Source: Thalassorhabdomicrobium marinisediminis (GTDB lineage: Bacteria; Pseudomonadota; Alphaproteobacteria; Rhodobacterales; Rhodobacteraceae). Taken from it: a stretch of 64,000 nt of DNA. Shown here one piece after another: positions 17,546 to 46,910 of the stretch. The notes under the pieces are model-generated. The model was not told where the DNA came from. It ran no database searches and was given only the letters and a program-made list of their open reading frames with translations. The stretch lies in the NCBI RefSeq assembly GCF_003072065.1, contig NZ_QCYG01000003.1, positions 336,908 through 400,907 of the forward strand. Reading direction: 5' to 3'. How positions within the stretch are numbered: the stretch's first letter is position 1; every line of letters starts with the position of its first letter. The translations under genes were made by a program, and so were the position numbers.

Positions 17546-20500
17546 CTAGTCCCTTGCCCTTCCTCCGAGCTTTTCGGCCAAATCAAGCCAGTCTTTTGGC
17601 AGCCGGCTGCCAAGCGCCCTTGCTCCGGATTGAAGTAGGTTGGCAAGCGCACCAACTTCTTCCTTCCTTGCCCAGTTGATAGCGGCTTCGAGCGCGGGCA
17701 CATGTAAACTTGGTTGGGATAACAAAAAGCGCTGATGCTCAACGATAAAAGCCCATTCATCAGCGAACAGGATATGGAGTTGTTTGATCATGCGCGCACC
17801 GCAACCGCAAGCCGCCGCGCACTGAAGAAGGGAGAGTTGCCGATTGATGATATTGGAAGGGTGCAGCACTTCGTCATCTGGAGCTAGCGCGTAGCTGAAA
17901 ATCTGCGTGGCATAGTCCGCGGAGTCTGCAGTCGACGTGCCAACCAGAATCTCTCTCCATAGGTCTAGCTCAGGTGTGGTCGCTTTAAGCCGCTTTTGAA
18001 GCTCTACCAATAGGGCTTCACAAAAGGTAGTTTTGTCTGCCCGATCCCGTGCGCCAAAGTATGCGGCAAGTGCCGATGAGTGAACGAACACTGCTTTAAC
18101 GCCGGGATCCTCGAGATCACGGAAGTGCAATTGTTTGATCTTTTCGATTTGAGAGATTGGAGTTCCCGCCCTCTCTTTTTGAGCAACATCAAACGCGGCA
18201 GCGAGCTGGAGCAAGGCATGCGCGATTTGGTCGGGTGTGCCTTCTTTAACGGCAAGATCAAACTCGGCGGCGCCCAATAAGATGTGAAAGGCCAAAGTGG
18301 TCTTGGACCAGCTAAGATCTGGAAACAGATCATGCAGGTTTTGACGGAGGCCCACGATAATCAATAGCAATTTAATGTCTTCAAGGCGCCCACTCGGGCG
18401 CTCTTTTTCTTCCGGATAGTCGGCATCGAGAGCGGCGAGCGCGCCGTAGTGAAGCTCGCGTTCCAGACCGGTTGGGCCGCCGGTCGTCTCATGTAGCCAG
18501 CCGACCAGCCAGCGCAACTTTAGGTGAAGAGCTCGCGCCGCGTCATCGCTCTCCGGATCGATATCGTCCAGCATATTGATCAGCGGCGCGAGTTCGCGCA
18601 ATGCTGTTTCAACATCGCCGCTCCGCCAGAGACACATGGCCGCTTCCGCACGGAGCGCCACTTTGTGGGCGCGCGCAGATGTTACCTCAGACTGAACCGC
18701 TTCGGCAGCGGAGGCAGCCTCCAGAAAGGCCGTCCGCGCAGCCCCCAAGTCACCAAGATTAGCGGAGGCGACAGCCTGTTCTTTTAATGCGTACATGCGC
18801 TCAATATCAGAGCTTTGATCGGTGTGCGCGCGAATGCTCTCTAGTATTGCGCGTGCCTCTTCATATTGATGATCATGACCCAGAACTTTGGCCTTTTGCC
18901 GGAGCAGTCCTGGATGATCGGGCAAAGCTTCAATGCCCGTCTCGACGATCTCCAGCGCCTTTGGTCGATCGTTCTGGAACTCATCCCAGAGCACAGATTG
19001 AGCGATAGTGCATTCGGCGATGAGATCGGTCTCCCCCCAGTTCTCTGCCATGCTAGCTATTGTCTCGTAGTCGTCGATTGAGGAGGCCACATCAAGCTTG
19101 CCGGTCGACCAGGCGTTCGCCCAGGCCGATTGAATATGCAGGCTATATCCCTTGAAGAAGGTTCTGAGCTGGGAAAGGCGCCTCGTCCGCGCGTCGGGTT
19201 CCAAACGCTCTAGTGCAAGAAAGAAAGCCTTTAGTTCGGCCGGATTTTCATTGGCGGAAGCTCCGATCTGAAGCATGAAACCGCTGACGTCGGCGGTCTC
19301 GCCGAACTCCTCTTGCATAAGTTGAACCGCAGAACTTTGACTGCTTTGAACTAGGTCGGGTTCCATCTTTGCCAGAGCTTCAAAATAGGCGATGTAGGAC
19401 AAGCGCAGGCCCCAATCCAGGCGCGCGCCCTGAGCCAACAGGATCTTGAGCAGCGCCATGCTTGTCAGCGCGTTCCTAAGCTCTTCATTTCCGACCGCCA
19501 TGGCCTCGCGCATGGCGGCAAGTGCAATGGGTTCGAACAAGGTCTTTTCACCATTGAGGGCAGCGACATCGATCTGCAGCATGCGTAGGAAATGAGACGT
19601 GCTCGGATCCTCTGGCAGCAGCATCTGATCGGTTCTCAGGTAAACTAAGCCGCTTAGCTTTGCTGCGACTGCCTTGTGAGTTTCGTTATCGAAAGAGAGC
19701 GATTTCTCAAAGAACTTTGTGATGAACCAGCCTTGTTTGGACCCGAGGGCGGTCCAGAATACTGAATCGAGCGCCTCATATGGAATAGGTCCGCGTTTTA
19801 TTGTCGATATCAGAAATCCGGTCTGGACGCTTTTGATCGTCTCCGGTCCGAGATCCTCCTGCAAACCGGAAAGCAGCGGAGACAAACGAAAATAGCCGGG
19901 TGCCGTGGGCACTTTTTCGATCCAGGGACCGGTGAGCAAGTCGAGGCTCGCAGATGGCTCTTCAATGCTGGGGGCGAGGGCCGCGATGGCGATCGCAGTT
20001 GGACGGTCAAACTTGAACATTATGCAACCGAGTCGCTTCAAGAGGGCGCGGCCATGGTCGGTTGCATCCTCCAGCAAGCGGCGCCGCGCCTCGGCACGGC
20101 TCAGCTCGATCGCTTCGCTAGGCGTGCCTGAAATATCCTCGATCAAAGCGTCTATTGGCCAGCGGCGATGGTTAAGCGACACGACTTTCGCCGCAGTTAG
20201 TTGCGGATGACCGCCCGATGCGGCGATATGGATAGTCAGACCCCAGGCTTCGGCCTGATCCAACGGTGCGTATGTCTGCCCAACAAACTCGGTAATCTCG
20301 TCCACAGAAAGGTATGGGGCACACTTTGCCGCGTTTGGGGTAAAACGGGCCGCTTGAAAAGAAGCGGGGTTCAGCACGCGTGTCGAAGTGACAACAACGT
20401 ATCCCCCGCGCTCGCGCATCCAATTTACAAAACGACCCAAGCGGCCTGTGTGTTTTGCAACAGTGTCGCTGTCCATATCGTCAAGAATGATACCGCGGAC

Positions 20501-21553
20501 GTCGCCCCCAAGTGTGATATCCGTATACGCTCGATCCAAACGCCGCAGCATTTCGCTAGGGTTTGTTGGGCCGCGAAAATCTACCGCGAGCCAATTTACC
20601 TCGGAAGCTTGCGCAATCTGCAAAGCCAGAGTGGATTTGCCGGTGCCGCTAGCACCATGGAGCCAAAGGGCATGGGTATCATCGAGAATCCCCAAAAATT
20701 CCTGAACTAAACCTGTGCGCGTGGCAAGAATATCGGGCAAATCGATCTCTTCTACCGGGGCAGTCCAACTGGCGCGTGCCCAGCCAGTTTCATGGCCAGG
20801 TTGGCCGGGGCGGGCGACTTCGTGCAAAAATCCGTGCAGATCGGCTGCGGTCAACCGCCGAAGTGCGGGGTCGTTTTCACTGCCGACAGTGAACACACGA
20901 TCGACGATCGCGGCCGCGGTGCTTGGTGCCATCCCAACAGGGAGTTCAAGAGCGGCGAGACGTCCGGCAATGAGTTCTGCAAGCATTGCGTTTTGCGCCG
21001 CTCCGCTGGGCTGGCTGGTTCTCCAAGACACGCGGTTAATAAGTCTCGATCGCAAGGCTCCCTCATCTGGGTTGCTCTCGAGCCAGTCTTTGAGTTTGCC
21101 GCCCGGCAGAGTGTTTAATAGAAGGGCTTTGAGGGGCGCAGTGTCTGCGCCGCAATTGACCGCGTGCCAATATGCGATCCCGGTGACCCCGCCCGGCAAG
21201 TCTGCTCCGTGTTCCCTCCCAATCTCCATATTGGTATGAATGACCAAAGACACGTCCGGGACCTCGCCTTCTCGGCTTGTGGCCCAGAAGTTTTCAAGCG
21301 CGTCACGGGCGTCTTTGCTCGCAAGCGTAAGAGTGCGATCGCTGGCGGTGTGCTTGACCTGCGTCAGCTCGGTGCCGCCACTGGTTGTTTCGACGTCAAA
21401 GTCCTCGAAGATCTCGATCAGCAAGCTGTCGGCTTCGGAGAGGTTCAGCCAGGCGATGGCGGTTTCCAACAGCTGAAACCGAAACGCGCCTATCACATGC
21501 GCTGCTTGTCGCTTCGGATTGGGGGGTAAGGGTTTCTGCGGCTGGCTTCCCAT
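17546..21553 (-). CDS. Antiviral-STAND (Avs-like) NTPase with N-terminal Cap4/DUF4297 nuclease domain
   Basis: A single 1335-residue protein. Residues about 20-90 match the Cap4/DUF4297 endonuclease pattern: FRFQLLETAIAWLNL, then LLIEIFEDFDVET and ELTQVKHTASD, which supply the acidic and QxK residues of a PD-(D/E)xK site. A STAND-type NTPase follows, with Walker A GASGTGKST near residue 300, Walker B GIILDDMDSD near 355, and a winged-helix-like region to about 600. The rest is helical with TPR-like pairs, as expected for a sensor. This nuclease-NTPase-repeat order is that of Avs proteins, which recognise phage proteins and then cut DNA. The ATG at 21553 is preferred over a TTG at 21562. It sits beside a recombinase remnant, fitting lateral transfer. 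Function is inferred. Confidence 0.72.
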   Translation of the reverse strand: MGSQPQKPLPPNPKRQAAHVIGAFRFQLLETAIAWLNLSEADSLLIEIFEDFDVETTSGGTELTQVKHTASDRTLTLASKDARDALENFWATSREGEVPDVSLVIHTNMEIGREHGADLPGGVTGIAYWHAVNCGADTAPLKALLLNTLPGGKLKDWLESNPDEGALRSRLINRVSWRTSQPSGAAQNAMLAELIAGRLAALELPVGMAPSTAAAIVDRVFTVGSENDPALRRLTAADLHGFLHEVARPGQPGHETGWARASWTAPVEEIDLPDILATRTGLVQEFLGILDDTHALWLHGASGTGKSTLALQIAQASEVNWLAVDFRGPTNPSEMLRRLDRAYTDITLGGDVRGIILDDMDSDTVAKHTGRLGRFVNWMRERGGYVVVTSTRVLNPASFQAARFTPNAAKCAPYLSVDEITEFVGQTYAPLDQAEAWGLTIHIAASGGHPQLTAAKVVSLNHRRWPIDALIEDISGTPSEAIELSRAEARRRLLEDATDHGRALLKRLGCIMFKFDRPTAIAIAALAPSIEEPSASLDLLTGPWIEKVPTAPGYFRLSPLLSGLQEDLGPETIKSVQTGFLISTIKRGPIPYEALDSVFWTALGSKQGWFITKFFEKSLSFDNETHKAVAAKLSGLVYLRTDQMLLPEDPSTSHFLRMLQIDVAALNGEKTLFEPIALAAMREAMAVGNEELRNALTSMALLKILLAQGARLDWGLRLSYIAYFEALAKMEPDLVQSSQSSAVQLMQEEFGETADVSGFMLQIGASANENPAELKAFFLALERLEPDARTRRLSQLRTFFKGYSLHIQSAWANAWSTGKLDVASSIDDYETIASMAENWGETDLIAECTIAQSVLWDEFQNDRPKALEIVETGIEALPDHPGLLRQKAKVLGHDHQYEEARAILESIRAHTDQSSDIERMYALKEQAVASANLGDLGAARTAFLEAASAAEAVQSEVTSARAHKVALRAEAAMCLWRSGDVETALRELAPLINMLDDIDPESDDAARALHLKLRWLVGWLHETTGGPTGLERELHYGALAALDADYPEEKERPSGRLEDIKLLLIIVGLRQNLHDLFPDLSWSKTTLAFHILLGAAEFDLAVKEGTPDQIAHALLQLAAAFDVAQKERAGTPISQIEKIKQLHFRDLEDPGVKAVFVHSSALAAYFGARDRADKTTFCEALLVELQKRLKATTPELDLWREILVGTSTADSADYATQIFSYALAPDDEVLHPSNIINRQLSLLQCAAACGCGARMIKQLHILFADEWAFIVEHQRFLLSQPSLHVPALEAAINWARKEEVGALANLLQSGARALGSRLPKDWLDLAEKLGGRARD

Positions 21554-21947
21554 GTCACTCAAATGGGCGTTTCAATGTGCTTCGCGGATAGCCGCAACGT
21601 TCGAGAAACTCGCGGAACTGGAACACTAAATACCGCCCCTGGCACTTCTCCAGCTTTTAGGCAGCGGACTATCGTTTCATGCTCTCTTCCCATCGACGCA
21701 AAGGTAACAGATTGTACGGACCAATGTCCACTTAGGGGAAGCTGCAGAGTAGCGCATCAAATACCGACAAATGTCCGCTAAGGGCCGTCTCCGTCCTCGA
21801 CCAAGCCCCGTGATAGGTCGAGGCTGCACCACACACGTGCCCGGTGACTTCCTGCGCTTGGATTCACTCGAGACCACCTTCGACAACGGTGGTCAAATCC
21901 CACTTTTCAATCTATGGTCGCCAATATCTCAGCCAAAGGGTCTCAAT
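21554..21947. other. Intergenic region between the STAND gene and the bactofilin gene
   Basis: No gene can be supported. It separates two divergently read genes and must hold both promoters. Short degenerate repeats of the local intergenic type occur around 21700-21800. Confidence 0.35.
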
Positions 21948-36364: not shown

Positions 36365-36916
36365 TTATTTCGCAGGCACCTTGCGCAGAACCCTTTGATT
36401 TCCTGTGACAAACTTGATATCAGACGATTCAAAATCGCCATCATCAGATACCAGAATATACCCGCCGGACATGCACTCGCTAACGAGAGCCGCATCCGTT
36501 AAATCCAACTCTCCGCCGACAACTAAGCCCAGGTTCCCCTCTAAGCAATCTTGTTGCAAGTTAGATTGTTGATATGTGCAATCAGTCAAAATATCTAAGC
36601 AAATATCTCTGACCGCTGCTACTCGCGCCTTGAAGCTCTCGTCATTTTTCCGACGCGTCTTATAGCTTTGCCACTCTTTCTTTCCAAATAGAGACTCGTA
36701 TTCTATTTTGCAAACGCGATTGAAAAACTCGGAAATTACCTGTTCATTTACGACTACCGTGTTGCCAGCTTTGAGTAAACTTGAATAGAAGTCACTATAA
36801 ACTTGTTTTGCAGGCCGTGGATCATTGCCATAAATTGCAATCCAAATGTTTGTGTCGAACAAGACGAATTCGTTCTCGAAGCTGCATTCTTCATGCGCAT
36901 TGATAACCTCACTCAT
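36365..36916 (-). CDS. PIN-domain ribonuclease-like protein
   Basis: The 183-residue protein opens after a short leader with FVLFDTNIWIAIYG, the first acidic residue of a PIN site. A Glu in NEQVISEFFNRV, then ELDLTDAALVSECM and YILVSDDGDFES, provide the remaining carboxylates. The start at 36916 has AGAGG upstream and overlaps the end of the DUF4325 gene by eight bases. It is longer than typical VapC toxins (about 130 aa). Its place after a STAS-like and an ATPase gene suggests a regulated RNase output rather than a classic toxin-antitoxin pair. Confidence 0.75.
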   Translation of the reverse strand: MSEVINAHEECSFENEFVLFDTNIWIAIYGNDPRPAKQVYSDFYSSLLKAGNTVVVNEQVISEFFNRVCKIEYESLFGKKEWQSYKTRRKNDESFKARVAAVRDICLDILTDCTYQQSNLQQDCLEGNLGLVVGGELDLTDAALVSECMSGGYILVSDDGDFESSDIKFVTGNQRVLRKVPAK

Positions 36917-37268
36917 CGGCGTCGCCTCTACCATCTTCAAACAGTTTTTCTATGGCAGGTGGGTCTGCAAAAAATACCTTGGCTCGTTCCACCACCATCT
37001 TCAGGCGCGCCAAATGCCAATCTTGATAGTCAACTGGTGGTGCGAGGTGCTTTCTGATTACGCCTTCTTCTAACTCACCATAAAGCTGACCGACGGCTGT
37101 GTTGAGGAATGCCGTTGTCATCCTTGTAACGCCAAAGAAAGAGATCTCCGCACGGTTTCCCTTTGTGATAATATCATAGATTACACGGTACACCTTCTGC
37201 CCGTCTGACGCTGCGACGCAGATGCCTCCGTCGACAATTGTGGATATTATAACTTTAGTGGTTTTCAT
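36909..37268 (-). CDS. STAS-like DUF4325 protein
   Basis: The 119-residue protein matches the DUF4325 pattern: VYRVIYDIITKGNRAEISFFGVT followed by TTAFLNTAVGQLYGEL, a STAS-like helix carrying the residues of a switch. It starts four bases after the ATPase stop and overlaps the PIN gene, so three products are made from one unit. DUF4325 proteins repeatedly accompany GHKL ATPases. By analogy with anti-sigma systems, the ATPase may phosphorylate or bind the STAS protein. Confidence 0.75.
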   Translation of the reverse strand: MKTTKVIISTIVDGGICVAASDGQKVYRVIYDIITKGNRAEISFFGVTRMTTAFLNTAVGQLYGELEEGVIRKHLAPPVDYQDWHLARLKMVVERAKVFFADPPAIEKLFEDGRGDADE

Positions 37269-37272
37269 TTGA

Positions 37273-37839
37273 TCACCATATTTCGTGCGGATTGGTAGCT
37301 GACTTCATGTGGTAAGAGTTAGCATCCGACGTGTTAATTTCCAATGACACTACCGTACCAGGGTAAGGGTTTGCGATGCGTTGCTTTTTCATTTTTCTGT
37401 TTCGATATTCCCAATAGCCGTGATGTGAGCAAACAAGCAGGCATCCACCGTTCATGCCTATAAACTCTTTTAAGATTCCTAAGCCCAACCCGCCCGGGAT
37501 ATCTCCCTGCCGAGCGCTGTTGTTCATCTCCATAGCCCAGTCTATCGCGTCCTGCGGCGTCGCAAAATTTTTCCCGGCCGCTGATAGGGACCCGGGAATG
37601 CCTCTGCCACCATCAGATATAACGAAAGCTAACCTGTCCAAACGTGGAAAAAACTGGCCTCCCGCAAAGACTGAAATTGGAGAGTTGGCCCAGAGCGCAC
37701 TGTTTGCGAACAACTCATCAATGCCTTCAAAAAACTTAGTAACTAGGCCGTCACTCATGCGAGGCATTTCCCGCCTCATTAACCGTTCTTTGCTAAATAT
37801 TGAGAACTCGACGGCACTATTAGCGTCAAAGCTAGTCAC
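37273..37839 (-). CDS. GHKL (histidine-kinase-type) ATPase domain, C-terminal part of a split gene
   Basis: The frame carries the ATP-binding Bergerat fold: the N-box KFFEGIDELFANSALWANS, G1 VISDGGRGIPGS, G2 GGLGLGILKEFI and a final GTVVSLEI strand. There is no dimerisation/His domain, so it is an anti-sigma-type ATPase rather than a sensor kinase. The ORF from its GTG has 188 codons, but the frame is open upstream and continues the STAS-like gene at 37920-38147 through GNEVLFYN and VHGTTIPVTSF. I believe the two are one gene broken by a -1 shift. Confidence 0.72.
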   Translation of the reverse strand: MTSFDANSAVEFSIFSKERLMRREMPRMSDGLVTKFFEGIDELFANSALWANSPISVFAGGQFFPRLDRLAFVISDGGRGIPGSLSAAGKNFATPQDAIDWAMEMNNSARQGDIPGGLGLGILKEFIGMNGGCLLVCSHHGYWEYRNRKMKKQRIANPYPGTVVSLEINTSDANSYHMKSATNPHEIW

Positions 37840-38435: not shown

Positions 38436-41363
38436 TCATGCACTTTTCTGCAGCTTGGCTTTGCCGTCGCAGTCTGGGAAGCGGACACAGCTAAGAAATG
38501 CTCCATAGCGGCCGCGCCGTTCTACAAGCCATCCTGCGTCGCAACTCGGACAAGTCGGCTGTGTCTCGCCGCAATCACCACAAACCAGGTCTCCACTGAC
38601 CCGAGAACGGACCGGGAGGCCGACACCACAGGCCGGACAGGCGGGCATGCGACTGCCGCACAGCTTCACGTGCTCGCAGCGATACCAGTCGCGACCGTCC
38701 TTGCCGGGCATGTGAAGCAGACGTCCACCGCAACCCGGACAGGTGTGGGTGTGCTTCTGGGCCTCCAAGGGCACGACTACGCCGAATTCCGGTTCCTTCA
38801 TTAGCTCCTCGACGAAGACGGAGGGGCGCGCCTCGGATGCAAGGATGGTCACGGTCCGACGGGCCCGGGTCACGGCGACATACATGACGCGCCGCTCTTC
38901 GGCATTCGGAAATGGCTCGGACTCGGGCGAGACCAGGCTGAGCAGAGGGTCGTCGACGATCATCGACGGGAAGCCCATCTTCGCGTTGTCGGCACCGAGG
39001 ATGATCACGTGATCGGTCTCCAGGCCCTTCGAGGCATGGATGGTCTTGAAAGTGATCGTCGCCCCAGGGTTCTGGCGCTGAAGCCGCCCGACATCGGGCC
39101 TCAGGAAACGGTATCTTCCCAGGATCAGGATGGACGGTTTCTCGCCCCCCTTGCCTTCCGTGGCCGCAAGTGCAGCCACCGCGTCGTTCAAGGCCGTCTC
39201 CCCGGTGTCGCGGCGCGTCCAGGCGATACGGATTGAAGGCTCGTCCGTCTCCCCTGCCGGTATCACCGTCTTCGTGATCTGAGCGGGGTTGCGCAGAACG
39301 AAGCGACGGGCGGCCAGCGCAATCTTGTCGACGGATCGGAAGGTCCGGCCGAGGTCGACGGTCCGATGGACACCGCCGGCCCCTGCATAGGTGCCCCCGA
39401 ACTCCGCGCCAAAGTTACGCATGATGTGGATGTCCGACCCGGCGAAGCGGTAGATCGATTGCCAGTCATCACCAACGGCAAACACCTTGGCATCGGAATG
39501 CTGGCGCTTGAGAGCCTGGATCAACTTCGCCCGCCCGGTCGAAATGTCCTGGAACTCGTCGACGAGGATGTGCCGAAACGGGCTCTGGTAGCGCCCGCTT
39601 TCGACGAAGGCAGTGGCGCGGTCCACCATGTCTTCGAAGTCGATCCGATCACCCAGGCGGGACTGATACTCTCGGAACACGGCCCCGAAGATCTTGAGGA
39701 AGGCCTCGGCCCGTTTGCCCATCTTCAGCGTCTGCGCCTTGTCGGAGCAGTCCTCGACCCGATAGCCGCCGTTCTTGAAATGACGCAGGAAGGTGCCCAT
39801 CAGCGAGGTGAAGCTGTCTACCACACCGACCTCGGCCACACGATCATAGATCTCGATATCCGGGATCGGCCGCAGCGTGACGTAGGGCTCCAGCTTTTCG
39901 GCAAGCGCGTCGAGCAGCCGGCCCTCTTCACGCTCCCAGCTGTAGGTCTCGACCAGAACCGTCTCGTGCTCGGCATGGACCTGCCGCTTCCAGTCCATGC
40001 TTTCGAGGTATTCATCGCGATCGACGTAAGGCGCCGTGGTCAGTTCCTCCACGCCGTCCCGGCCGCGTTTCTTGCGCACGCCGAAATGCTCGATGTAGAC
40101 GCCGCTCTCTGTCAGCCGGAAATCGGGCGTGTAGACGCGGCGACCCGTTTTCTGGAGCTTATGCTCGTAGCTCGGCTCGTATTCGTAGGCGATGCCGTTC
40201 CGGAAGAGCCAGTTGGCGATCAGAAGCTCTTCGAAGCTGTTCACCGTTTCGCCTTGCAGCGTCCGCAGGTTGCGGCTCTCGATCTGCGCATACCATTCGT
40301 GCTTCGTCTTGAAGTCCCATTCTGTCGGGAAGTCGTCAAAGAAACCGGCGAACCAACCGATCACGGTCTGCGCGATCTCGCTGGCGGTCGCCACGATGTG
40401 CCGCAGGATCTCCTTCATCAGGGACAAGAAGGCCTTGTCGTCTGTCGCGGTCGGCGCCAGGGGTGGCTTTTCGCCTTCTACCTCACCGATGATCTCGTAG
40501 GCCAATGCATGGAAGGTGCGGGCCGCCACGGGGACGCCACACCGCGCCTCGATCCGCTCCGACATCTCGGTCGCTGCGTCTTTCGCAAAGGCCAGCAGCA
40601 GGAGCTCGCTTGGCTTCCGTATCTCCGCCTTCACGAGGTATGCGGCCTTGGCGGTGACCACGCTTGTCTTGCCGGAGCCCGCCCCGGCCAGAACCAGCGT
40701 CGCATCTTCGTCGACGACCACCGACAGGCGCTGCTCCGGCGTCAGTGGCATAGTCTCGACCGTGTCGAAAAAATCCTTCCAGCGGAGGAGCTGACCCTCC
40801 ACAAACATCTCGATAGATGAGTCACGGACGGCATTCGGATCGGATGCGAACGCAACGATCGGGGCAATTCGGGACATGACTTCGTCGCCAACGGCCTCCG
40901 CATTCAGCTTAGAAAGCACCCGGCGGGTCAGATCGGCAGCATCGCGCTCCAGCGGCGCGACGTGGCATGCTGCGGGATAAGCGTCCGGCACCTTGAGTGC
41001 ATCGAGCGCGTGCAGGATCCGCAGAACCGCGGCCTCCTCCTTTTCCAACTCCGCCCGGTTAAAATCCGTCCAGGCGGCGGCAGCGGCATCTGCAAAGTTT
41101 CTTGCTGCAGACGCGTCCACCGCCGGCAAGGTCAGATTCCGGCCGCCCCCGAGATCGAGCGACAGAGACGAAGAGAGGAGGCCCTTCCTCATTGAAGGGC
41201 GCGTCGCGATTGAGTCAAACCCTATCCAGGGCGAACCCGCCCCACGCGCGGCAATGCCCCTGTCTTGCAGGGTCAGGGACCTTGGATGTCGGCCAAGAGG
41301 GTCAACCAAGAACCCCAGGAAGGATTTTGAGACGAGATTCATGTGCGCCGAAGTGTCAGTCAT
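38436..41363 (-). CDS. UvrD/HelD-type SF1 helicase with embedded PD-(D/E)xK nuclease and C-terminal zinc ribbons
   Basis: The 975-residue protein has an N-terminal HelD-like domain (1-200), Walker A LVLAGAGSGKTS near 226, and motif II ILVDEFQDIS near 601. Further on come VGDDWQSIYRFAGSD (motif III), TFKTIHASKGLE (motif V) and MYVAVTRARR (motif VI). Between motif Ia and motif II, residues about 370-430 form an unexpected module: NSFEELLIANWLF, YTPDFRL and YIEHFGV, a PD-(D/E)xK nuclease pattern. Beyond residue 870 come several Cys4 zinc ribbons, the last of topoisomerase-I type (CPSCDAGWLVERRG). Its 5' flank is an IS3 remnant, so the native promoter is lost. Confidence 0.85.
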   Translation of the reverse strand: MTDTSAHMNLVSKSFLGFLVDPLGRHPRSLTLQDRGIAARGAGSPWIGFDSIATRPSMRKGLLSSSLSLDLGGGRNLTLPAVDASAARNFADAAAAAWTDFNRAELEKEEAAVLRILHALDALKVPDAYPAACHVAPLERDAADLTRRVLSKLNAEAVGDEVMSRIAPIVAFASDPNAVRDSSIEMFVEGQLLRWKDFFDTVETMPLTPEQRLSVVVDEDATLVLAGAGSGKTSVVTAKAAYLVKAEIRKPSELLLLAFAKDAATEMSERIEARCGVPVAARTFHALAYEIIGEVEGEKPPLAPTATDDKAFLSLMKEILRHIVATASEIAQTVIGWFAGFFDDFPTEWDFKTKHEWYAQIESRNLRTLQGETVNSFEELLIANWLFRNGIAYEYEPSYEHKLQKTGRRVYTPDFRLTESGVYIEHFGVRKKRGRDGVEELTTAPYVDRDEYLESMDWKRQVHAEHETVLVETYSWEREEGRLLDALAEKLEPYVTLRPIPDIEIYDRVAEVGVVDSFTSLMGTFLRHFKNGGYRVEDCSDKAQTLKMGKRAEAFLKIFGAVFREYQSRLGDRIDFEDMVDRATAFVESGRYQSPFRHILVDEFQDISTGRAKLIQALKRQHSDAKVFAVGDDWQSIYRFAGSDIHIMRNFGAEFGGTYAGAGGVHRTVDLGRTFRSVDKIALAARRFVLRNPAQITKTVIPAGETDEPSIRIAWTRRDTGETALNDAVAALAATEGKGGEKPSILILGRYRFLRPDVGRLQRQNPGATITFKTIHASKGLETDHVIILGADNAKMGFPSMIVDDPLLSLVSPESEPFPNAEERRVMYVAVTRARRTVTILASEARPSVFVEELMKEPEFGVVVPLEAQKHTHTCPGCGGRLLHMPGKDGRDWYRCEHVKLCGSRMPACPACGVGLPVRSRVSGDLVCGDCGETQPTCPSCDAGWLVERRGRYGAFLSCVRFPDCDGKAKLQKSA

Positions 41364-41389: not shown

Positions 41390-41716
41390 GCGGGGAACCT
41401 CATGGCCCAGAATATATTAGTGGAAAGCTGATGGAATGGGCCGAGAAACGCAATGTTCGACTGGAATACATCCAGCCGGGCAAGCCACAACAGAATGCCT
41501 ACATCGAACGCTACAACCGCACCGTTCGCGGCGAATGGCTTGGGCAATACATCTTCGAAACCATCGAGGAGGCACAAGACCAAGCAATTGAATGGCTCTG
41601 GACTTACAACAACGAGCGACCCAACATGGGCATCGGCGGCATGACACCCGCCATGAAGCTGAAAACAGCCGCCTGAATTCTACGGCTGGACCCCATTAAA
41701 AATGGGGGGATTACCA
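41390..41716 (+). mobile_element. IS3-family transposase 3' remnant
   Basis: The plus strand encodes the C-terminal end of an IS3 OrfB integrase core, including EYIQPGKPQQNAYIERYNR with the catalytic Glu and TYNNERPNMGIGGMTPA, ending at 41676. Downstream lies a likely right end with cccatt/aatggg inverted repeats and ggggggattacc. The left part of the element is missing; the joint at about 41390 abuts the promoter region of the UvrD helicase gene. Confidence 0.8.
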
Positions 41717-41892
41717 ACCTACCCGTGCTCATATGCGTGGTCTGATAGTTTCACTGATCATTGAAAACTTCACTCAAGGCAAAACTTCAATCGGAAATCG
41801 TGCGGCGTTCACGACAATCGTTGTCAACAAACACAGGCTTTATTCTGGGTCTAATGCAGAGGTTATCCATCTGATTTTGCAAGCGCAAATTA

Positions 41893-44800
41893 TCAAAGCC
41901 TAGATTGCGCACTAATTTTCCGCTCTACGAGGTTCGAGATAAGCTTGGCGCTATCTTCGCTCAGATCCGGGCCTTCCTTCGTCGTCACAAGCTGGCCCGG
42001 AAACCATTGGTCATACCAGAGCCGCTTGCGTTCCCATCGTTCGACGTAATTGGCCTTATCAAGCATTCCAAGGTGTTCCCAGAAAGTTGTCTTCCCGCCC
42101 GACGTAATCGTGAAGTCTGGCAGGTGCATTGAACCGTCTTTTGCAACCAAAGGACTTTCATATGCAAAGCGAACATCCTTCTCATGTAGAAGATTAGCGA
42201 TGATCACTTCTGACTTCGATCGCACCATATCACCGCTCAGGGCCTTGTGAATGCGCCCCTCTTCATACCATGATCGGTCCCGCAAGAGTGGGTCAGCCTT
42301 GTTTCGCTGAAATAGCCAAGATGAGATGCTCGGCACTTGGGCATTCTCTCTGCGGCGAGCTTTTAGTAGCGATGAGATATCGTCTTTTAGGAGCAGAGTG
42401 CAGTGTCCAGTAGCACGGGTTAGGGCAGTATAGACCAACTCCATGGCAAGCGGGCTTTCTGCCTGCGGCAGAACTATGATCGTCTCGTCAAACTCGCTGC
42501 CCTGAGCTTTGTGAACTGTAATCGCGTAACCCAACTCGAGGTTCTCGCTGGCACTTACCGTGCCCCACCGGCCGTCAGATCGTTGGATGTCTTTGCCGTA
42601 TCCAACATCCAACCCTGGCTTGCGCGCAAATTCTACAGCAAATCGACTTAGTCGTTTACCCCGACCGCTCCTCATACGAGCAGCTAGACCCTTAGCATCC
42701 ATCCCGGATGGCTTCACCATTCCGATTTCACCATTGAACACTTCGACATCTTGCACCTTACGCAGGTTCCAATCGTAAGCCGACAAAGGATTCGACCTCG
42801 TTCGGTTTCGGACCTGAATAACTTTATCACCTAAAGTCAGTCCATCGACGACACCTAGCCGTTCAATCGTGGATGCGTTTCTTCGACGCTGGCACGCTTG
42901 GTTGAGGTTCTCGACACCATGTGAGCCGCCTCGATGCGGCGTCAGAATTTGAAACGCGGCTGGCCCCTTCGAAAATGCATCCTTCCACAAAAGATATGGC
43001 TTCTCTTCGTCAACTTTCAATCCGGTCTTCAAGGCCATCCGTTGCTCCAGCCGGTTGATCAAAAGCGCGGGAAGCTCTTCAGGCTTGGACCAAAACTCTA
43101 CTGCGAGGTCTGTATCGATTTCGCCCCCTGCATGTAATCGCTCAAGCATATCCTTCTGCGCCAATGTGGTCGCCCCGGTGTCGTCTGGACCATTCTGTTC
43201 AGTCGACATTTTGTGCCAGGCAGGATTTGCGCGGAACATACCAGCAACCTCAAGCACTGCCGTTCCACGCCCTTCAATCTGATTAAGTAACTGGCGAAGA
43301 TTTTGTTGCAAACGACCAATTGCCTCGGGGCGCTCGCCTTCGAGCCAACGAATGACATCTGCGAAAACTCGACCCCTGCCGACAGGTGGGAGTTGGCCCT
43401 CGTCACCGACGAGCACGAGCCGTTGCACGGTATCCCAGTCAACCATTCGCGCGAAAGCCGCAGCAAGCTCCAAGTCAAGCATTGATGTCTCGTCAACAAT
43501 AAGCGTTCCAACATCAAGCTTCTTTCCGCCTCGCCGATGGAAGGTCAGATTGTCTGCAAGCCACCCATTGGAAGCTAAAGCTGAATGAATGGTATCGACC
43601 TGCGCAGGAACCTTTGCTTCCCGTAGAAGTTCCCGCACCCGGTCACCTGCCTTTCCTGTTGGTGTCAGAATTCGGATAGAGGTGCCGTCGCCGTCCGTAG
43701 ATTTGACCGCTCGCACAATTGCCTGGATTACGCTTGTTTTACCTGTTCCCGCTGTTCCCGCGAGTACAGAAAGGGGCTGCCTTAGTAGACGTGCAGCAAT
43801 CTCTTCCTGCTCTTTTACAGCAGACCCATATTTTTCTGTTGCCTTGCGGGCGAGTGAACTGTCCTCACGGTAGAGCCAGCGGCGCCAAGTGTCCGAAGAG
43901 ATCGCTCGTCGAAGCGTCATCTCTTCACGGTCGGCAAGGCCAGCGAGAGCTTTTTCGACCGCACGCTCATCTTGATAAACACTGCTCAGGTAGACGACGG
44001 TCTCATTCTCGTCAGCACGGAGGGTAAGTGCCTCATCGAGGTAATCCGCCCCCACATCAAAAAAATGCTCGTTCAACTGATGTCGTTTCCAGTCCGGAAG
44101 TCGAGCAAGCCGAAAATTTGCTCGCTTAACCAATTCGCTTACCGGAAGAAAGCTATGAACACCTTCACGAAGCAGGCAATCCACCATAAGGGCACGCAGC
44201 CGCCGTTCGTCATCAATCTCGAGCTCTTCTGCACCCCGAGGTCCAAGGTCAGGAGATGGCAGCATAGCACGGTCCACTGCGGACCAAGGGATGCGATCCG
44301 CTGGATCATCGCCAATGAAGGCTTCTGACAGGATATAAGGGTTCTCGATAATTTCGCCCACGTCGTGTGGAAGACCGTGATTGTTCCGGTGTAAGAGAAT
44401 TTTCTCAATTGTTCCGGCGGGCAGAGAGAGCCGTGATAGGGCCCCCCTTGCTAAAACACGGATACCCTCGGGATGCCGTGCCCACCTATTCTGAAGGTTT
44501 CGAACTTTTCGATCCGATAGGAATTCCCCCATCCCAACCGGCTTCTCACGGTCCAGAAAAGAAAAAGCTGCCTTATGGGCGGCACTGACGCCCAAACGCA
44601 AAGCGATATTTTTCGTATCCGTGATAAGATCCGAGGCACCTACGATCATGAACCCTGCCGCAAGAAACGCGACAAGCGTGTCGACGCTGACCAAGCCGAA
44701 TTGCTGCGCTGCAACAAGGGAGACGATGGCGCCGAGATTTGGAATCAGGTCGCCAAGATAGTGAAGACTGTCGGCGGCCACGATCCGATTGTCTGTGAGC

Positions 44801-45228
44801 CGAGCGACCCGCCGCTGGAAGAGCACAAGACCGAGTGTCAAGACAATGGAAAGACCCATGACGACAAGCCCCGCGCCTTCTGCATGAAGCGTTGGAGGAG
44901 CGCTACCCGCAATCCGATCGACAGCGGCAAATCCGATGCCCGCGCCTGCCACTGCGATCGCCACGGCCTGTGCCAATGCTGCGAGGTCCTCGGCCGAGCT
45001 ATGCCCAAATGCATGATCGGCATCAGGGGGGCGTGCAGCGTAAAGAATGGCCATGAATGCCGTGGCGGAAACGAGAAGATCCAGTGCACTGTCTGCAGCA
45101 GAAGCGGCGATGGCGAGTGATCCGGTTGCTGCGAAAGCCCACAGTTTGGCAAGAACAAGAATACCTGCCACACCGACCGAGGCCATCCCCGCCCTCTTGT
45201 TGAGGCGTCGTCGTGCGACTTGATCCAA
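41893..45228 (-). CDS. CDF metal transporter fused to RecD2-like helicase with C-terminal nuclease
   Basis: An uninterrupted 1111-residue frame starts at a TTG with GGAG six bases ahead. Residues 1-205 are a cation-diffusion-facilitator membrane domain with six helices and the metal site DSALD in TM2 and HYLGD in TM5, but without the cytoplasmic CDF domain. From about 206 it becomes a RecD2-type helicase: helical N-domain (210-480), Walker A VLAGTAGTGKTS near 490, motif II LIVDETSML near 580, and AITVHKAQGSEFDE plus VYTALTRA. A C-terminal PD-(D/E)xK module (SEVIIANLL, LPDFTI, FWEHLGM; about 1000-1055) completes it. Either a real membrane-tethered nuclease-helicase or a recombination chimera. 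Confidence 0.82.
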   Translation of the reverse strand: MDQVARRRLNKRAGMASVGVAGILVLAKLWAFAATGSLAIAASAADSALDLLVSATAFMAILYAARPPDADHAFGHSSAEDLAALAQAVAIAVAGAGIGFAAVDRIAGSAPPTLHAEGAGLVVMGLSIVLTLGLVLFQRRVARLTDNRIVAADSLHYLGDLIPNLGAIVSLVAAQQFGLVSVDTLVAFLAAGFMIVGASDLITDTKNIALRLGVSAAHKAAFSFLDREKPVGMGEFLSDRKVRNLQNRWARHPEGIRVLARGALSRLSLPAGTIEKILLHRNNHGLPHDVGEIIENPYILSEAFIGDDPADRIPWSAVDRAMLPSPDLGPRGAEELEIDDERRLRALMVDCLLREGVHSFLPVSELVKRANFRLARLPDWKRHQLNEHFFDVGADYLDEALTLRADENETVVYLSSVYQDERAVEKALAGLADREEMTLRRAISSDTWRRWLYREDSSLARKATEKYGSAVKEQEEIAARLLRQPLSVLAGTAGTGKTSVIQAIVRAVKSTDGDGTSIRILTPTGKAGDRVRELLREAKVPAQVDTIHSALASNGWLADNLTFHRRGGKKLDVGTLIVDETSMLDLELAAAFARMVDWDTVQRLVLVGDEGQLPPVGRGRVFADVIRWLEGERPEAIGRLQQNLRQLLNQIEGRGTAVLEVAGMFRANPAWHKMSTEQNGPDDTGATTLAQKDMLERLHAGGEIDTDLAVEFWSKPEELPALLINRLEQRMALKTGLKVDEEKPYLLWKDAFSKGPAAFQILTPHRGGSHGVENLNQACQRRRNASTIERLGVVDGLTLGDKVIQVRNRTRSNPLSAYDWNLRKVQDVEVFNGEIGMVKPSGMDAKGLAARMRSGRGKRLSRFAVEFARKPGLDVGYGKDIQRSDGRWGTVSASENLELGYAITVHKAQGSEFDETIIVLPQAESPLAMELVYTALTRATGHCTLLLKDDISSLLKARRRENAQVPSISSWLFQRNKADPLLRDRSWYEEGRIHKALSGDMVRSKSEVIIANLLHEKDVRFAYESPLVAKDGSMHLPDFTITSGGKTTFWEHLGMLDKANYVERWERKRLWYDQWFPGQLVTTKEGPDLSEDSAKLISNLVERKISAQSRL

Positions 45229-45412
45229 TGAAGACTCCGTACTGGTGCTGGGCTGAAGTCCGGTCGGAAATCAGCCAGTACTGAATGATGCCAAGTCACA
45301 TTATCGGCAATGGACTCATATTGTTCAACTCTTTGGTAAAAATGAAAAACCGGATTCGTTTTTTAGAGCTGGCCAGCGCTATCGGCATTGCACGGGAGGC
45401 TGTTCAATTCGA

Positions 45413-46117
45413 TCACCCCTCTGCCGCCCGAATGATCCTCACGATCTCGCTATAGCCCCGCGCCTTGGCGTGTTGCAGGGGCGTGACGCCATCGCGGTCG
45501 GGGATTGTTAAGTCGGCTCCGGCGTCGGCCAGAGCACTCACGGTAGCTTGATAATCCGTCTCGCCATTGCCGAGGACCACGGCTTCCATCAGGGCAGTCC
45601 AGCCCAGATTGTTGACATGATCGAGCGGTGCGCCTCCGGCGATCAGGCGGCGAACGACCTCGTGGTGGCCCAGATGCGCGGCGGCGATCAGTGCTGTGCC
45701 GTCATAGACGCTGGTGATCAGGTCAGGCCGATTGCCGAGTTCCATCGCCAGCGACACCAATTCGGGATCGTCGGCGACAGCGGCGATGGTCAGCACGTCA
45801 TAGATACAATTTTCCAGCGCATTCATGTCGGCCCCGAGGATCGGGATACGCAGCCCATTGCCCAAATGCCGGGTAAGCCCCAGACTCTCGCGCTGCCGTG
45901 CTGGCGGGCCGCGGAGCAGGTTGTGCAACTCGTTGAGGGTCAACAGCCGCACACCGCATGTCCCTATGATGTTGAATGTCACGGCGTTCCGCTGATCGGT
46001 CTTCTGGATATTCTCCAGAGACGATCCCAATGCGTCGAGCAACTGTGCGTAGAATCGGATCGCTGTCACTTCCGGCATCATCTGGACCGAGAGGACCGGG
46101 AGAATGTACCGGTCCAT
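45413..46117 (-). CDS. Chimeric ORF: TniB C-terminal part fused to ankyrin repeats
   Basis: Residues 1-95 are TniB-like: PVLSVQMMPEVTAIRFYAQL, VRLLTLNELHNLLRG (Walker B-like ELH) and LTRHLGNGLRIPILG. At about 45832 the homology breaks off. From there, three ankyrin repeats follow in frame (DGTALIAAAHLGHHEVVRRL, GWTALMEAVVLGNGE, DGVTPLQHAKARGYSEIVR). Whether the fusion is expressed is unknown, since the upstream tniB part carries a stop. The ankyrin part probably came from an independent gene that lost its own start. Confidence 0.7.
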   Translation of the reverse strand: MDRYILPVLSVQMMPEVTAIRFYAQLLDALGSSLENIQKTDQRNAVTFNIIGTCGVRLLTLNELHNLLRGPPARQRESLGLTRHLGNGLRIPILGADMNALENCIYDVLTIAAVADDPELVSLAMELGNRPDLITSVYDGTALIAAAHLGHHEVVRRLIAGGAPLDHVNNLGWTALMEAVVLGNGETDYQATVSALADAGADLTIPDRDGVTPLQHAKARGYSEIVRIIRAAEG

Positions 46118-46362: not shown

Positions 46363-46910
46363 CTACCACTCTTCGATGTCCGCGAATGGTCGCGGCGGAC
46401 CCTTGGAGTTGACTCGCGCGAGGGCGGCCGGGTCCGTCCCCGGCGATTTGGCCGCCGGTGAAGTCTGTCGATTCGGCGCCGGTCGCGAACGCCCGCGGTG
46501 GGCGCTTTGCGATCGCTGAGCGGCGGTGTGCTCGATTTTCTGCATTTCCTCGGAGACGAAATTGGCGCCCTCATCATCACGCACTGCATTGCATTCCTGC
46601 GCCCGCTTCCGCGCCGCCCAATGTTCCCGGAGCGTCGTCGACGGTCGCGAGAGCGTGCGATACGGCACTCTGAGCCAAGAGCCATCGAAAGGGTCGAGAA
46701 CGTAAAGGCGCGAGAGATCGCGTGGATCGCGACGCAGGATCAAAAACCCCTCCCCTGTTCGGGCGTCGCGCGAGACTATCCACGGCTTCAGGGCGTTCGA
46801 GAAATAGCGGATGTGAACCACGGCTAATCCATCGCGCTGCAAGGTACGGCGCAGGACATGTTTGACGGGCTCACGAGGCTCGACGATCTGAACAGCACGG
46901 GGGCAAATCA
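46363..46910 (-). pseudogene. tniA: tniA transposase C-terminal fragment
   Basis: The minus strand encodes the C-terminal, Mu-transposase-C-like region of TniA: VVHIRYFSNALKPWIV, FLILRRDPRDLSRLYVLDPF, GSWLRVPYRTLSRPSTTLRE and a basic tail ending at 46363. The catalytic core is absent. The stop lies seven bases before the tniB ATG, keeping the native tniA-tniB order. The remnant marks an old Tn5053/Tn402-family insertion. Confidence 0.7.

What the first reader, a model, noticed from the sequence alone, without database searches (positions are those of the whole stretch)
41893..45228. In-frame fusion of a CDF metal transporter to a RecD2-like helicase-nuclease
Six CDF helices with the DxxxD and HxxxD metal site run without a stop into a RecD2-type helicase at about residue 205 (near 44613). 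If translated, this is a membrane-tethered helicase-nuclease, possibly gated by metal; membrane placement would suit interception of incoming DNA. If accidental, it is an unusually clean recombination chimera. Either way it is worth checking.
Basis: seen in the sequence. Interest (0 to 1): 0.72.

Follow-up and report, generated by a model that had tools for sequence, protein, structure and literature searches.

The report
Accidental transporter–helicase gene chimera
In a stretch of broken mobile genes, the front part of a metal-transporter gene runs in frame into the back part of a gene for a predicted anti-phage DNA helicase; relatives carry the two genes whole and separate, so the joined gene is likely an accident of DNA repair rather than a new membrane machine.

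Summary
In detail: one 1,111-codon frame (minus strand, 45228 to 41893) reads from a CDF transporter into a RecD-like helicase-nuclease. The joint lies at 44634-44638, after residue 197. The helicase is the rare candidate-defence family PDC-S68, not RecD2. Its closest relative (Roseobacter MAG, 93% identical) is a whole 1,220-residue protein; the fusion lacks that protein's first 310 residues. CDF relatives in 37 of 37 loci examined stop 95-117 residues further on. The two closest CDFs and the intact helicase gene share TGCCT at the joint, and G+C drops from 60% to 53% across it. The CDF piece belongs to a ~1.2-kb scrap (cdf'-ank') whose other end is fused to a broken tniB. No second fusion turned up in the searches made. 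Neither missing half was found elsewhere in the genome, apart from a 31% identical CDF paralogue. The helicase part keeps its motifs and frame (dN 0.028, dS 0.27), so the joining is likely recent; its own-branch changes are more radical than the sister's (p 0.008), hinting at relaxed constraint. Verdict: an ordinary repair-type chimera in a mobile-element graveyard. Side result: the lost S68 head is predicted to be a modified-base reader (EVE/YTH/ASCH type).

The parts
44638..45228 (-). CDF (cation efflux) transmembrane part, residues 1-197, with D46xxxD50 and H156xxxD160; cytoplasmic C-terminal domain missing
   Evidence: Pfam PF01545; 84-85% identical to intact CDFs in L064/L045 and L007; motif positions
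44634..44638 (-). joint: TGCCT, present at the same place in the two closest CDF relatives (L007, L064) and in the intact helicase gene (L005)
   Evidence: the other 33 of 35 CDF relatives printed differ there
41893..44637 (-). PDC-S68-type helicase-nuclease lacking its first 310 residues
   Evidence: PADLOC PDLC05066; 93-94% identical to L005 from codon 311 on
43735..43758 (-). Walker A GTAGTGKT (residues 491-498)
   Evidence: motif name recalled
43474..43494 (-). Walker B DETSMLD (residues 579-585)
   Evidence: motif name recalled
42067..42222 (-). PD-(D/E)XK-like nuclease motifs RSKSE ... LPDFTI ... FWEHLG (residues 1003-1054)
   Evidence: conserved in S68 relatives; motif name recalled
41851..41892 (-). 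last 42 bases of the stretch shared with L005; homology ends here
41404..41715 (+). 3' remnant of an IS3-family transposase
   Evidence: copies in some same-genus genomes
45413..45836 (-). 3' part of an ankyrin-repeat gene that lies near the CDF gene in L064 and L007
45837..46117 (-). tniB fragment fused in frame to the ankyrin part; same-frame stop upstream, 3' end missing
   Evidence: Pfam TniB; frames
46363..46842 (-). C-terminal fragment of a tniA-like transposase
   Evidence: Pfam Mu-transpos_C 23.6 bits against 21.7

Best explanation
The frame joins codons 1-197 of a CDF transporter gene to codons 311 onward of a PDC-S68-type helicase-nuclease gene, and this joint was likely made by accidental end joining of broken DNA at the five bases TGCCT, not by selection for a membrane-tethered helicase. 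Shown: relatives carry both genes whole and apart; the CDF piece is part of a ~1.2-kb scrap of a cdf-ank neighbourhood whose other end is fused to a broken tniB; the missing halves were not found elsewhere in this genome apart from a distant CDF paralogue. Inferred: the scrap was captured between mobile-element pieces during break repair or element decay, recently enough that no stop has appeared. Predicted: the product, if made, would lack both the CDF C-terminal domain and the predicted modified-base reader of S68, and would likely work neither as a usual transporter nor as the original defence protein.
For: Intact S68 in L005 (1,220 aa, profile 1-1200 of 1202); P0002 reads normal S68 sequence through the joint; S68 relatives in 4 other of 394 family genomes (two 49% identical over the whole length, two 28-31% identical and partial) and 1 other of 385 class genomes (43%, whole length), none with a CDF start in the matched range. 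Intact CDFs: in 37 of 37 loci examined the frame stops 95-117 residues past the match; in the 101 other genomes matching the open frame is 239-664 codons, too short for a CDF plus this helicase, and the seven fetched frames above 400 codons are extended upstream. TGCCT shared by the two closest CDFs and L005; chance of 5 or more shared bases at a random joint 0.005 in a simple model. G+C step and separate nearest relatives for each side. The neighbour ORF 45413-46117 is a second chimera, tniB'::ank', and its ank part comes from the CDF neighbourhood. IS3 and tniA remnants alongside. S68 head not found in the own genome (no positive control); CDF tail only as a 31% paralogue. Window-branch amino-acid changes are more radical than the sister's (19 against 23 changes; permutation p 0.008 one-sided).
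Against: The frame is open over 1,111 codons; helicase and nuclease motifs are intact; S68 part dN 0.028, dS 0.27, no indel in the coding stretch; the window branch is not faster than the sister branch (19 against 23 changes). The break falls near the end of the sixth predicted helix, where a working fusion would want it. A GGAG lies 6 nt before the TTG and a weak promoter-like match at 45300-45328, so expression is possible. TGCCT stands in only 2 of 35 CDF relatives printed, so the shared bases rest on the two closest.
Confidence: 0.85

Rival explanations
1. A working membrane-tethered helicase-nuclease: the CDF bundle replaces the lost reader domain of S68 and holds the helicase at the inner membrane, perhaps sensing metal.
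For: Open frame, intact motifs, low dN/dS in the S68 part; long helices over the CDF part with one running through the joint in a poor model.
Against: No second example in the searches made; next to another chimera and transposon remnants; CDF C-terminal domain and predicted reader both lost; more radical substitutions on the window branch. The structure model of the whole fusion is too poor to judge (mean pLDDT 47).
Confidence: 0.06
2. Assembly error: two unrelated stretches were joined by the assembler.
For: No reads were available to check the joint; G000 is a draft in 35 contigs, and the joint lies about 19 kb from the end of its contig.
Against: The joint lies inside a 400,907-base contig; several short pieces are joined in a row; the missing halves were not found elsewhere in the assembly, so no two present loci explain it.
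Confidence: 0.05
3. The CDF half is dead weight, but a shortened S68 (about 880 residues) is made from an internal start such as Met232 and still works. This does not exclude an accidental origin of the joint.
For: Helicase and nuclease motifs intact; an in-frame ATG at residue 232. One S68-like hit, P0005, is 886 residues long and aligns only from residue 359 of intact S68 (31% identical); it begins with L, so it may be a cut gene call rather than a naturally headless one.
Against: L005, P0003, P0004, G368, G423, G640 and the two plasmid proteins inspected keep the N-terminal domain. No ribosome-site test was made for the internal start.
Confidence: 0.08

Closest known systems
PDC-S68 (PADLOC candidate defence family)
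   Same: Residues 194-1099 match profile positions 304-1199 at 1031 bits; helicase and nuclease motifs kept
   Different: The first ~303 profile positions are missing; a CDF membrane part stands there instead
CDF/FieF (YiiP) cation efflux transporters
   Same: Transmembrane part with DxxxD and HxxxD; residues 11-201 match FieF/YiiP chains
   Different: No C-terminal domain; the residues after TM6 are helicase
RecD2 / RecD helicases
   Same: RecD-type helicase core
   Different: RecD2 cut-off not reached (217.7 against 500 bits); C-terminal PD-(D/E)XK-like nuclease and, in the intact relatives, another N-terminus

Membership tests
CDF transporters | Cation_efflux domain | tested here: met
   PF01545 106.6 bits against 26.6
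CDF transporters | metal site DxxxD (TM2) and HxxxD (TM5) | tested here: met
   D46xxxD50, H156xxxD160
CDF transporters | cytoplasmic C-terminal domain (usual, though CTD-lacking members are reported: PMC6465983, passages) | tested here: not met
   sequence leaves the CDF family after residue 197; 37 of 37 relatives examined continue 95-117 residues
CDF transporters | metal transport | not testable with these tools
   needs an assay
PDC-S68 | match over the whole profile (1-1202) | tested here: not met
   304-1199 only; intact L005 1-1200
PDC-S68 | helicase core and C-terminal nuclease motifs | tested here: met
PDC-S68 | anti-phage activity | not testable with these tools
   PDC families are described as candidates, most awaiting validation (PMC12988326, passages)
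RecD2 (TIGR01448) | curated score cut-off | tested here: not met
   217.7 against 500 bits
Modified-base reader (PUA clan: EVE/YTH/ASCH), for the lost S68 head | fold | tested here: inconclusive

The most novel reading that the evidence does not exclude
A rare defence helicase-nuclease has swapped its modified-base reader for a six-helix metal-transporter bundle and so become a membrane-anchored, metal-responsive enzyme that attacks DNA as it enters the cell.
Probability: 0.05. Interest if true: 0.8.

Novelty: new member of a known kind. Interest (0 to 1): 0.2.

Why it matters
As a chimera it is ordinary, but it is a well-resolved case of in-frame gene fusion that looks recent: near relatives of both parents, shared bases at the joint and a second fusion joint 1.2 kb away can be seen. 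It also warns that domain fusions beside transposon remnants should not be read at once as new machines. The intact S68 family deserves attention on its own: the part lost here is predicted to be a modified-base reader, which would make S68 a reader-helicase-nuclease of the modification-dependent restriction type.

Tried and rejected
RecD2 identity: rejected on the curated cut-off. Reciprocal rearrangement inside this genome: rejected, since neither missing half was found apart from a 31% CDF paralogue (one search had no positive control). Fusion as a recurring architecture: no second case among 15 hits of 7,995 scored candidates or 2 hits of 7,997 scored candidates for residues 1-300 (both are plain S68; the word-based search may miss distant CDF fusions). 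One search gave 18 loci: one S68 (L005), one other helicase (L021) and 16 CDF loci, of which I checked the frames of 10 (L006-L015) and left six distant ones (L016-L020, L022) unchecked. None in viral contigs. In one search, 14 of 61 genomes matched; only the own genome held both halves; the other listed matches were to the IS3 tail, to short CDF pieces, or (G021) to the IS3 tail plus a 36-base piece of the helicase. CDF frames longer than usual (up to 664 codons): those I fetched proved to be extended upstream, not fused. CDF relatives counted: 37 loci, 27 of them from the 101 other genomes matching and 10; L099 and L015 are probably the same contig; in L008 and L061 the match ended at residue 191 and 196. 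Microhomology check on CDF relatives: TGCCT in 2 of 35 printed, the two closest; L006 has CGCCG. Structure of the whole fusion: mean pLDDT 47, not used for any claim beyond its poor quality. Alignment A2 placed the CDF tails wrongly and was not used for structure. Annotated collections: only plasmids were searched; 3 of 335 records covered 80% or more of the query, all 40-47% identical; the two inspected carry whole S68 genes of about 1,200 codons without CDF. Literature: no paper held both 'PADLOC' and 'PDC-S68'; 'RecD' does not occur in two EVE/BREX papers checked by term search. No tRNA in the window.

Full report
What is there. The window's minus strand holds one open frame of 1,111 codons from a TTG at 45228 to 41893. 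Residues 16-205 match the CDF domain, and helicase domains match between residues 472 and 945. The CDF metal residues are D46, D50, H156 and D160; helicase motifs stand at 491, 579, 608 and 933, and a PD-(D/E)XK-like set at 1003-1054 (motif names recalled).

What the helicase is. PADLOC places it in PDC-S68 with 1031 bits, but only from profile position 304 on; the RecD2 model fails its cut-off. The Roseobacter MAG locus L005 holds the whole protein, 1,220 residues, matching profile 1-1200. The DNA match runs from window 41851 to 44642 at 92.1%. P0002, 90% identical, also reads ordinary S68 sequence through the joint, although its 2,947-base contig holds only 967 residues. S68 is rare: own plus 4 of 394 family genomes at E 1e-30 and own plus 1 of 385 class genomes at E 1e-60 (the two samples overlap in part). 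Those five other frames are 1,199-1,290 codons long; three match over the whole S68 length and two (28-31% identical) in part.

What the transporter is. The nearest CDFs are 84-85% identical over 197 residues (L064/L045, L007) and continue with an ordinary C-terminal domain. In 37 of 37 loci examined the frame stops 95-117 residues beyond the match. In one search the open frames of the 101 other matching genomes are 239-664 codons; the own one is 1,125. In the genus, 1 of 18 other genomes has a match and it is 32% identical, so the CDF piece is probably not native to the lineage (inference).

The joint. Window GTAGGTGCCTCGG, CDF relative GTCGGTGCCTTGC and S68 relative TTAGATGCCTCGG share TGCCT at 44634-44638. 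The two closest CDFs (L007, L064) have it; the other 33 of 35 printed do not, L006 reading CGCCG. A random joint would share 5 or more bases about 5 times in 1,000 (simple model). The true parents are unknown, so this is support, not proof. G+C is 59.7% before and 53.1% after the joint, close to the relatives' values of 60.0% and 51.5%. At the 5' end, relatives L006 and L007 have an ATG one codon before the window's TTG, where the window reads TCA; the TTG has a GGAG 6 nt upstream.

The surroundings. Window 45423-45836 matches an ankyrin-repeat gene that lies near the CDF gene, in the same relative orientation, in L064 and in L007. In L064 three further frames stand between them. In the window that ankyrin piece is fused upstream to a tniB fragment, which has a stop in the same frame further upstream and no 3' end; a tniA fragment follows. 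On the other side the S68 homology ends 42 bases after its stop codon, and an IS3 transposase tail lies beyond. So the two fusion joints lie 1.2 kb apart in a row of element remnants.

How it likely arose and what it does. Most likely a scrap of a foreign cdf-ank neighbourhood was captured between mobile-element pieces and end-joined to a broken S68 gene at TGCCT; one in three such joints in this orientation is in frame. This step is inferred. The missing S68 head was not found in the genome (without a positive control) and the CDF tail only as a 31% paralogue, so a swap within the genome or a mis-join of two present loci does not explain it. The S68 part is not yet decayed: 910 codons, dN 0.028, dS 0.27 against L005, no indel. 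About 3.7% of random changes would create a stop, so the joining is probably younger than the split from L005, or the frame is still used. Polarised with P0002, 19 changes fall on the window branch and 23 on the L005 branch; the window's are more radical (mean BLOSUM -0.26 against +0.78, one-sided permutation p 0.008). The test was chosen after seeing the means and the numbers are small; it hints at relaxed constraint.

Verdict. The fusion is real in the assembly, probably recent, and best read as an accident. A working membrane-tethered helicase is not excluded; I put it at 5-6%. The internal-start rival does not exclude an accidental origin, so the odds given need not sum to one.

Noticed in passing
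L005:7110-8042: The N-terminal domain of intact PDC-S68 helicase-nucleases is predicted to resemble modified-base readers (YTH/EVE/ASCH); Pfam gives no domain there.
   Followed up: partly
window 45413-46117 (-): A second in-frame chimera, tniB' fused to the 3' part of an ankyrin-repeat gene.
   Followed up: yes
window 38436-41363 (-): A helicase IV-like protein (416 bits, under the curated cut-off of 543) with a zinc-ribbon tail; its helicase domain is interrupted by a stretch with a PD-(D/E)XK-like look (the nuclease reading is by eye).
   Followed up: no
window 36365-36940 and 37273-37839 (-): A PIN-domain protein next to a small GHKL-ATPase-like protein (Pfam match under the cut-off) with a weak DrmA match; possibly a small defence pair.
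   Followed up: no
window 17546-21562 (-): A 1,338-residue ATPase/TPR-like protein with a weak match to LmuA at its start.
   Followed up: no
window 44539-44550 (-), residues 227-230: Two of the 19 window-branch changes (G227R, T230P) lie together just past the joint and make the local sequence LDREKP look like the CDF linker MDRKAP; probably coincidence.
   Followed up: no
window 45229-45231 (-): Where CDF relatives L006 and L007 have their ATG start, the window reads TCA; the listed start is the next codon, TTG.
   Followed up: no
L005:4991-7061: Two overlapping frames upstream of the intact S68 gene may be one broken gene: the first has weak AAA matches, the second a weak type IIG restriction enzyme match.
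   Followed up: no
L035:7864-14841: On a Paracoccus plasmid the S68 gene follows directly on a type ISP restriction-modification gene.
   Followed up: no
P0005: An 886-residue S68-like protein that aligns only from residue 359 of intact S68 and begins with L; either a cut gene call or a naturally headless S68.
   Followed up: partly
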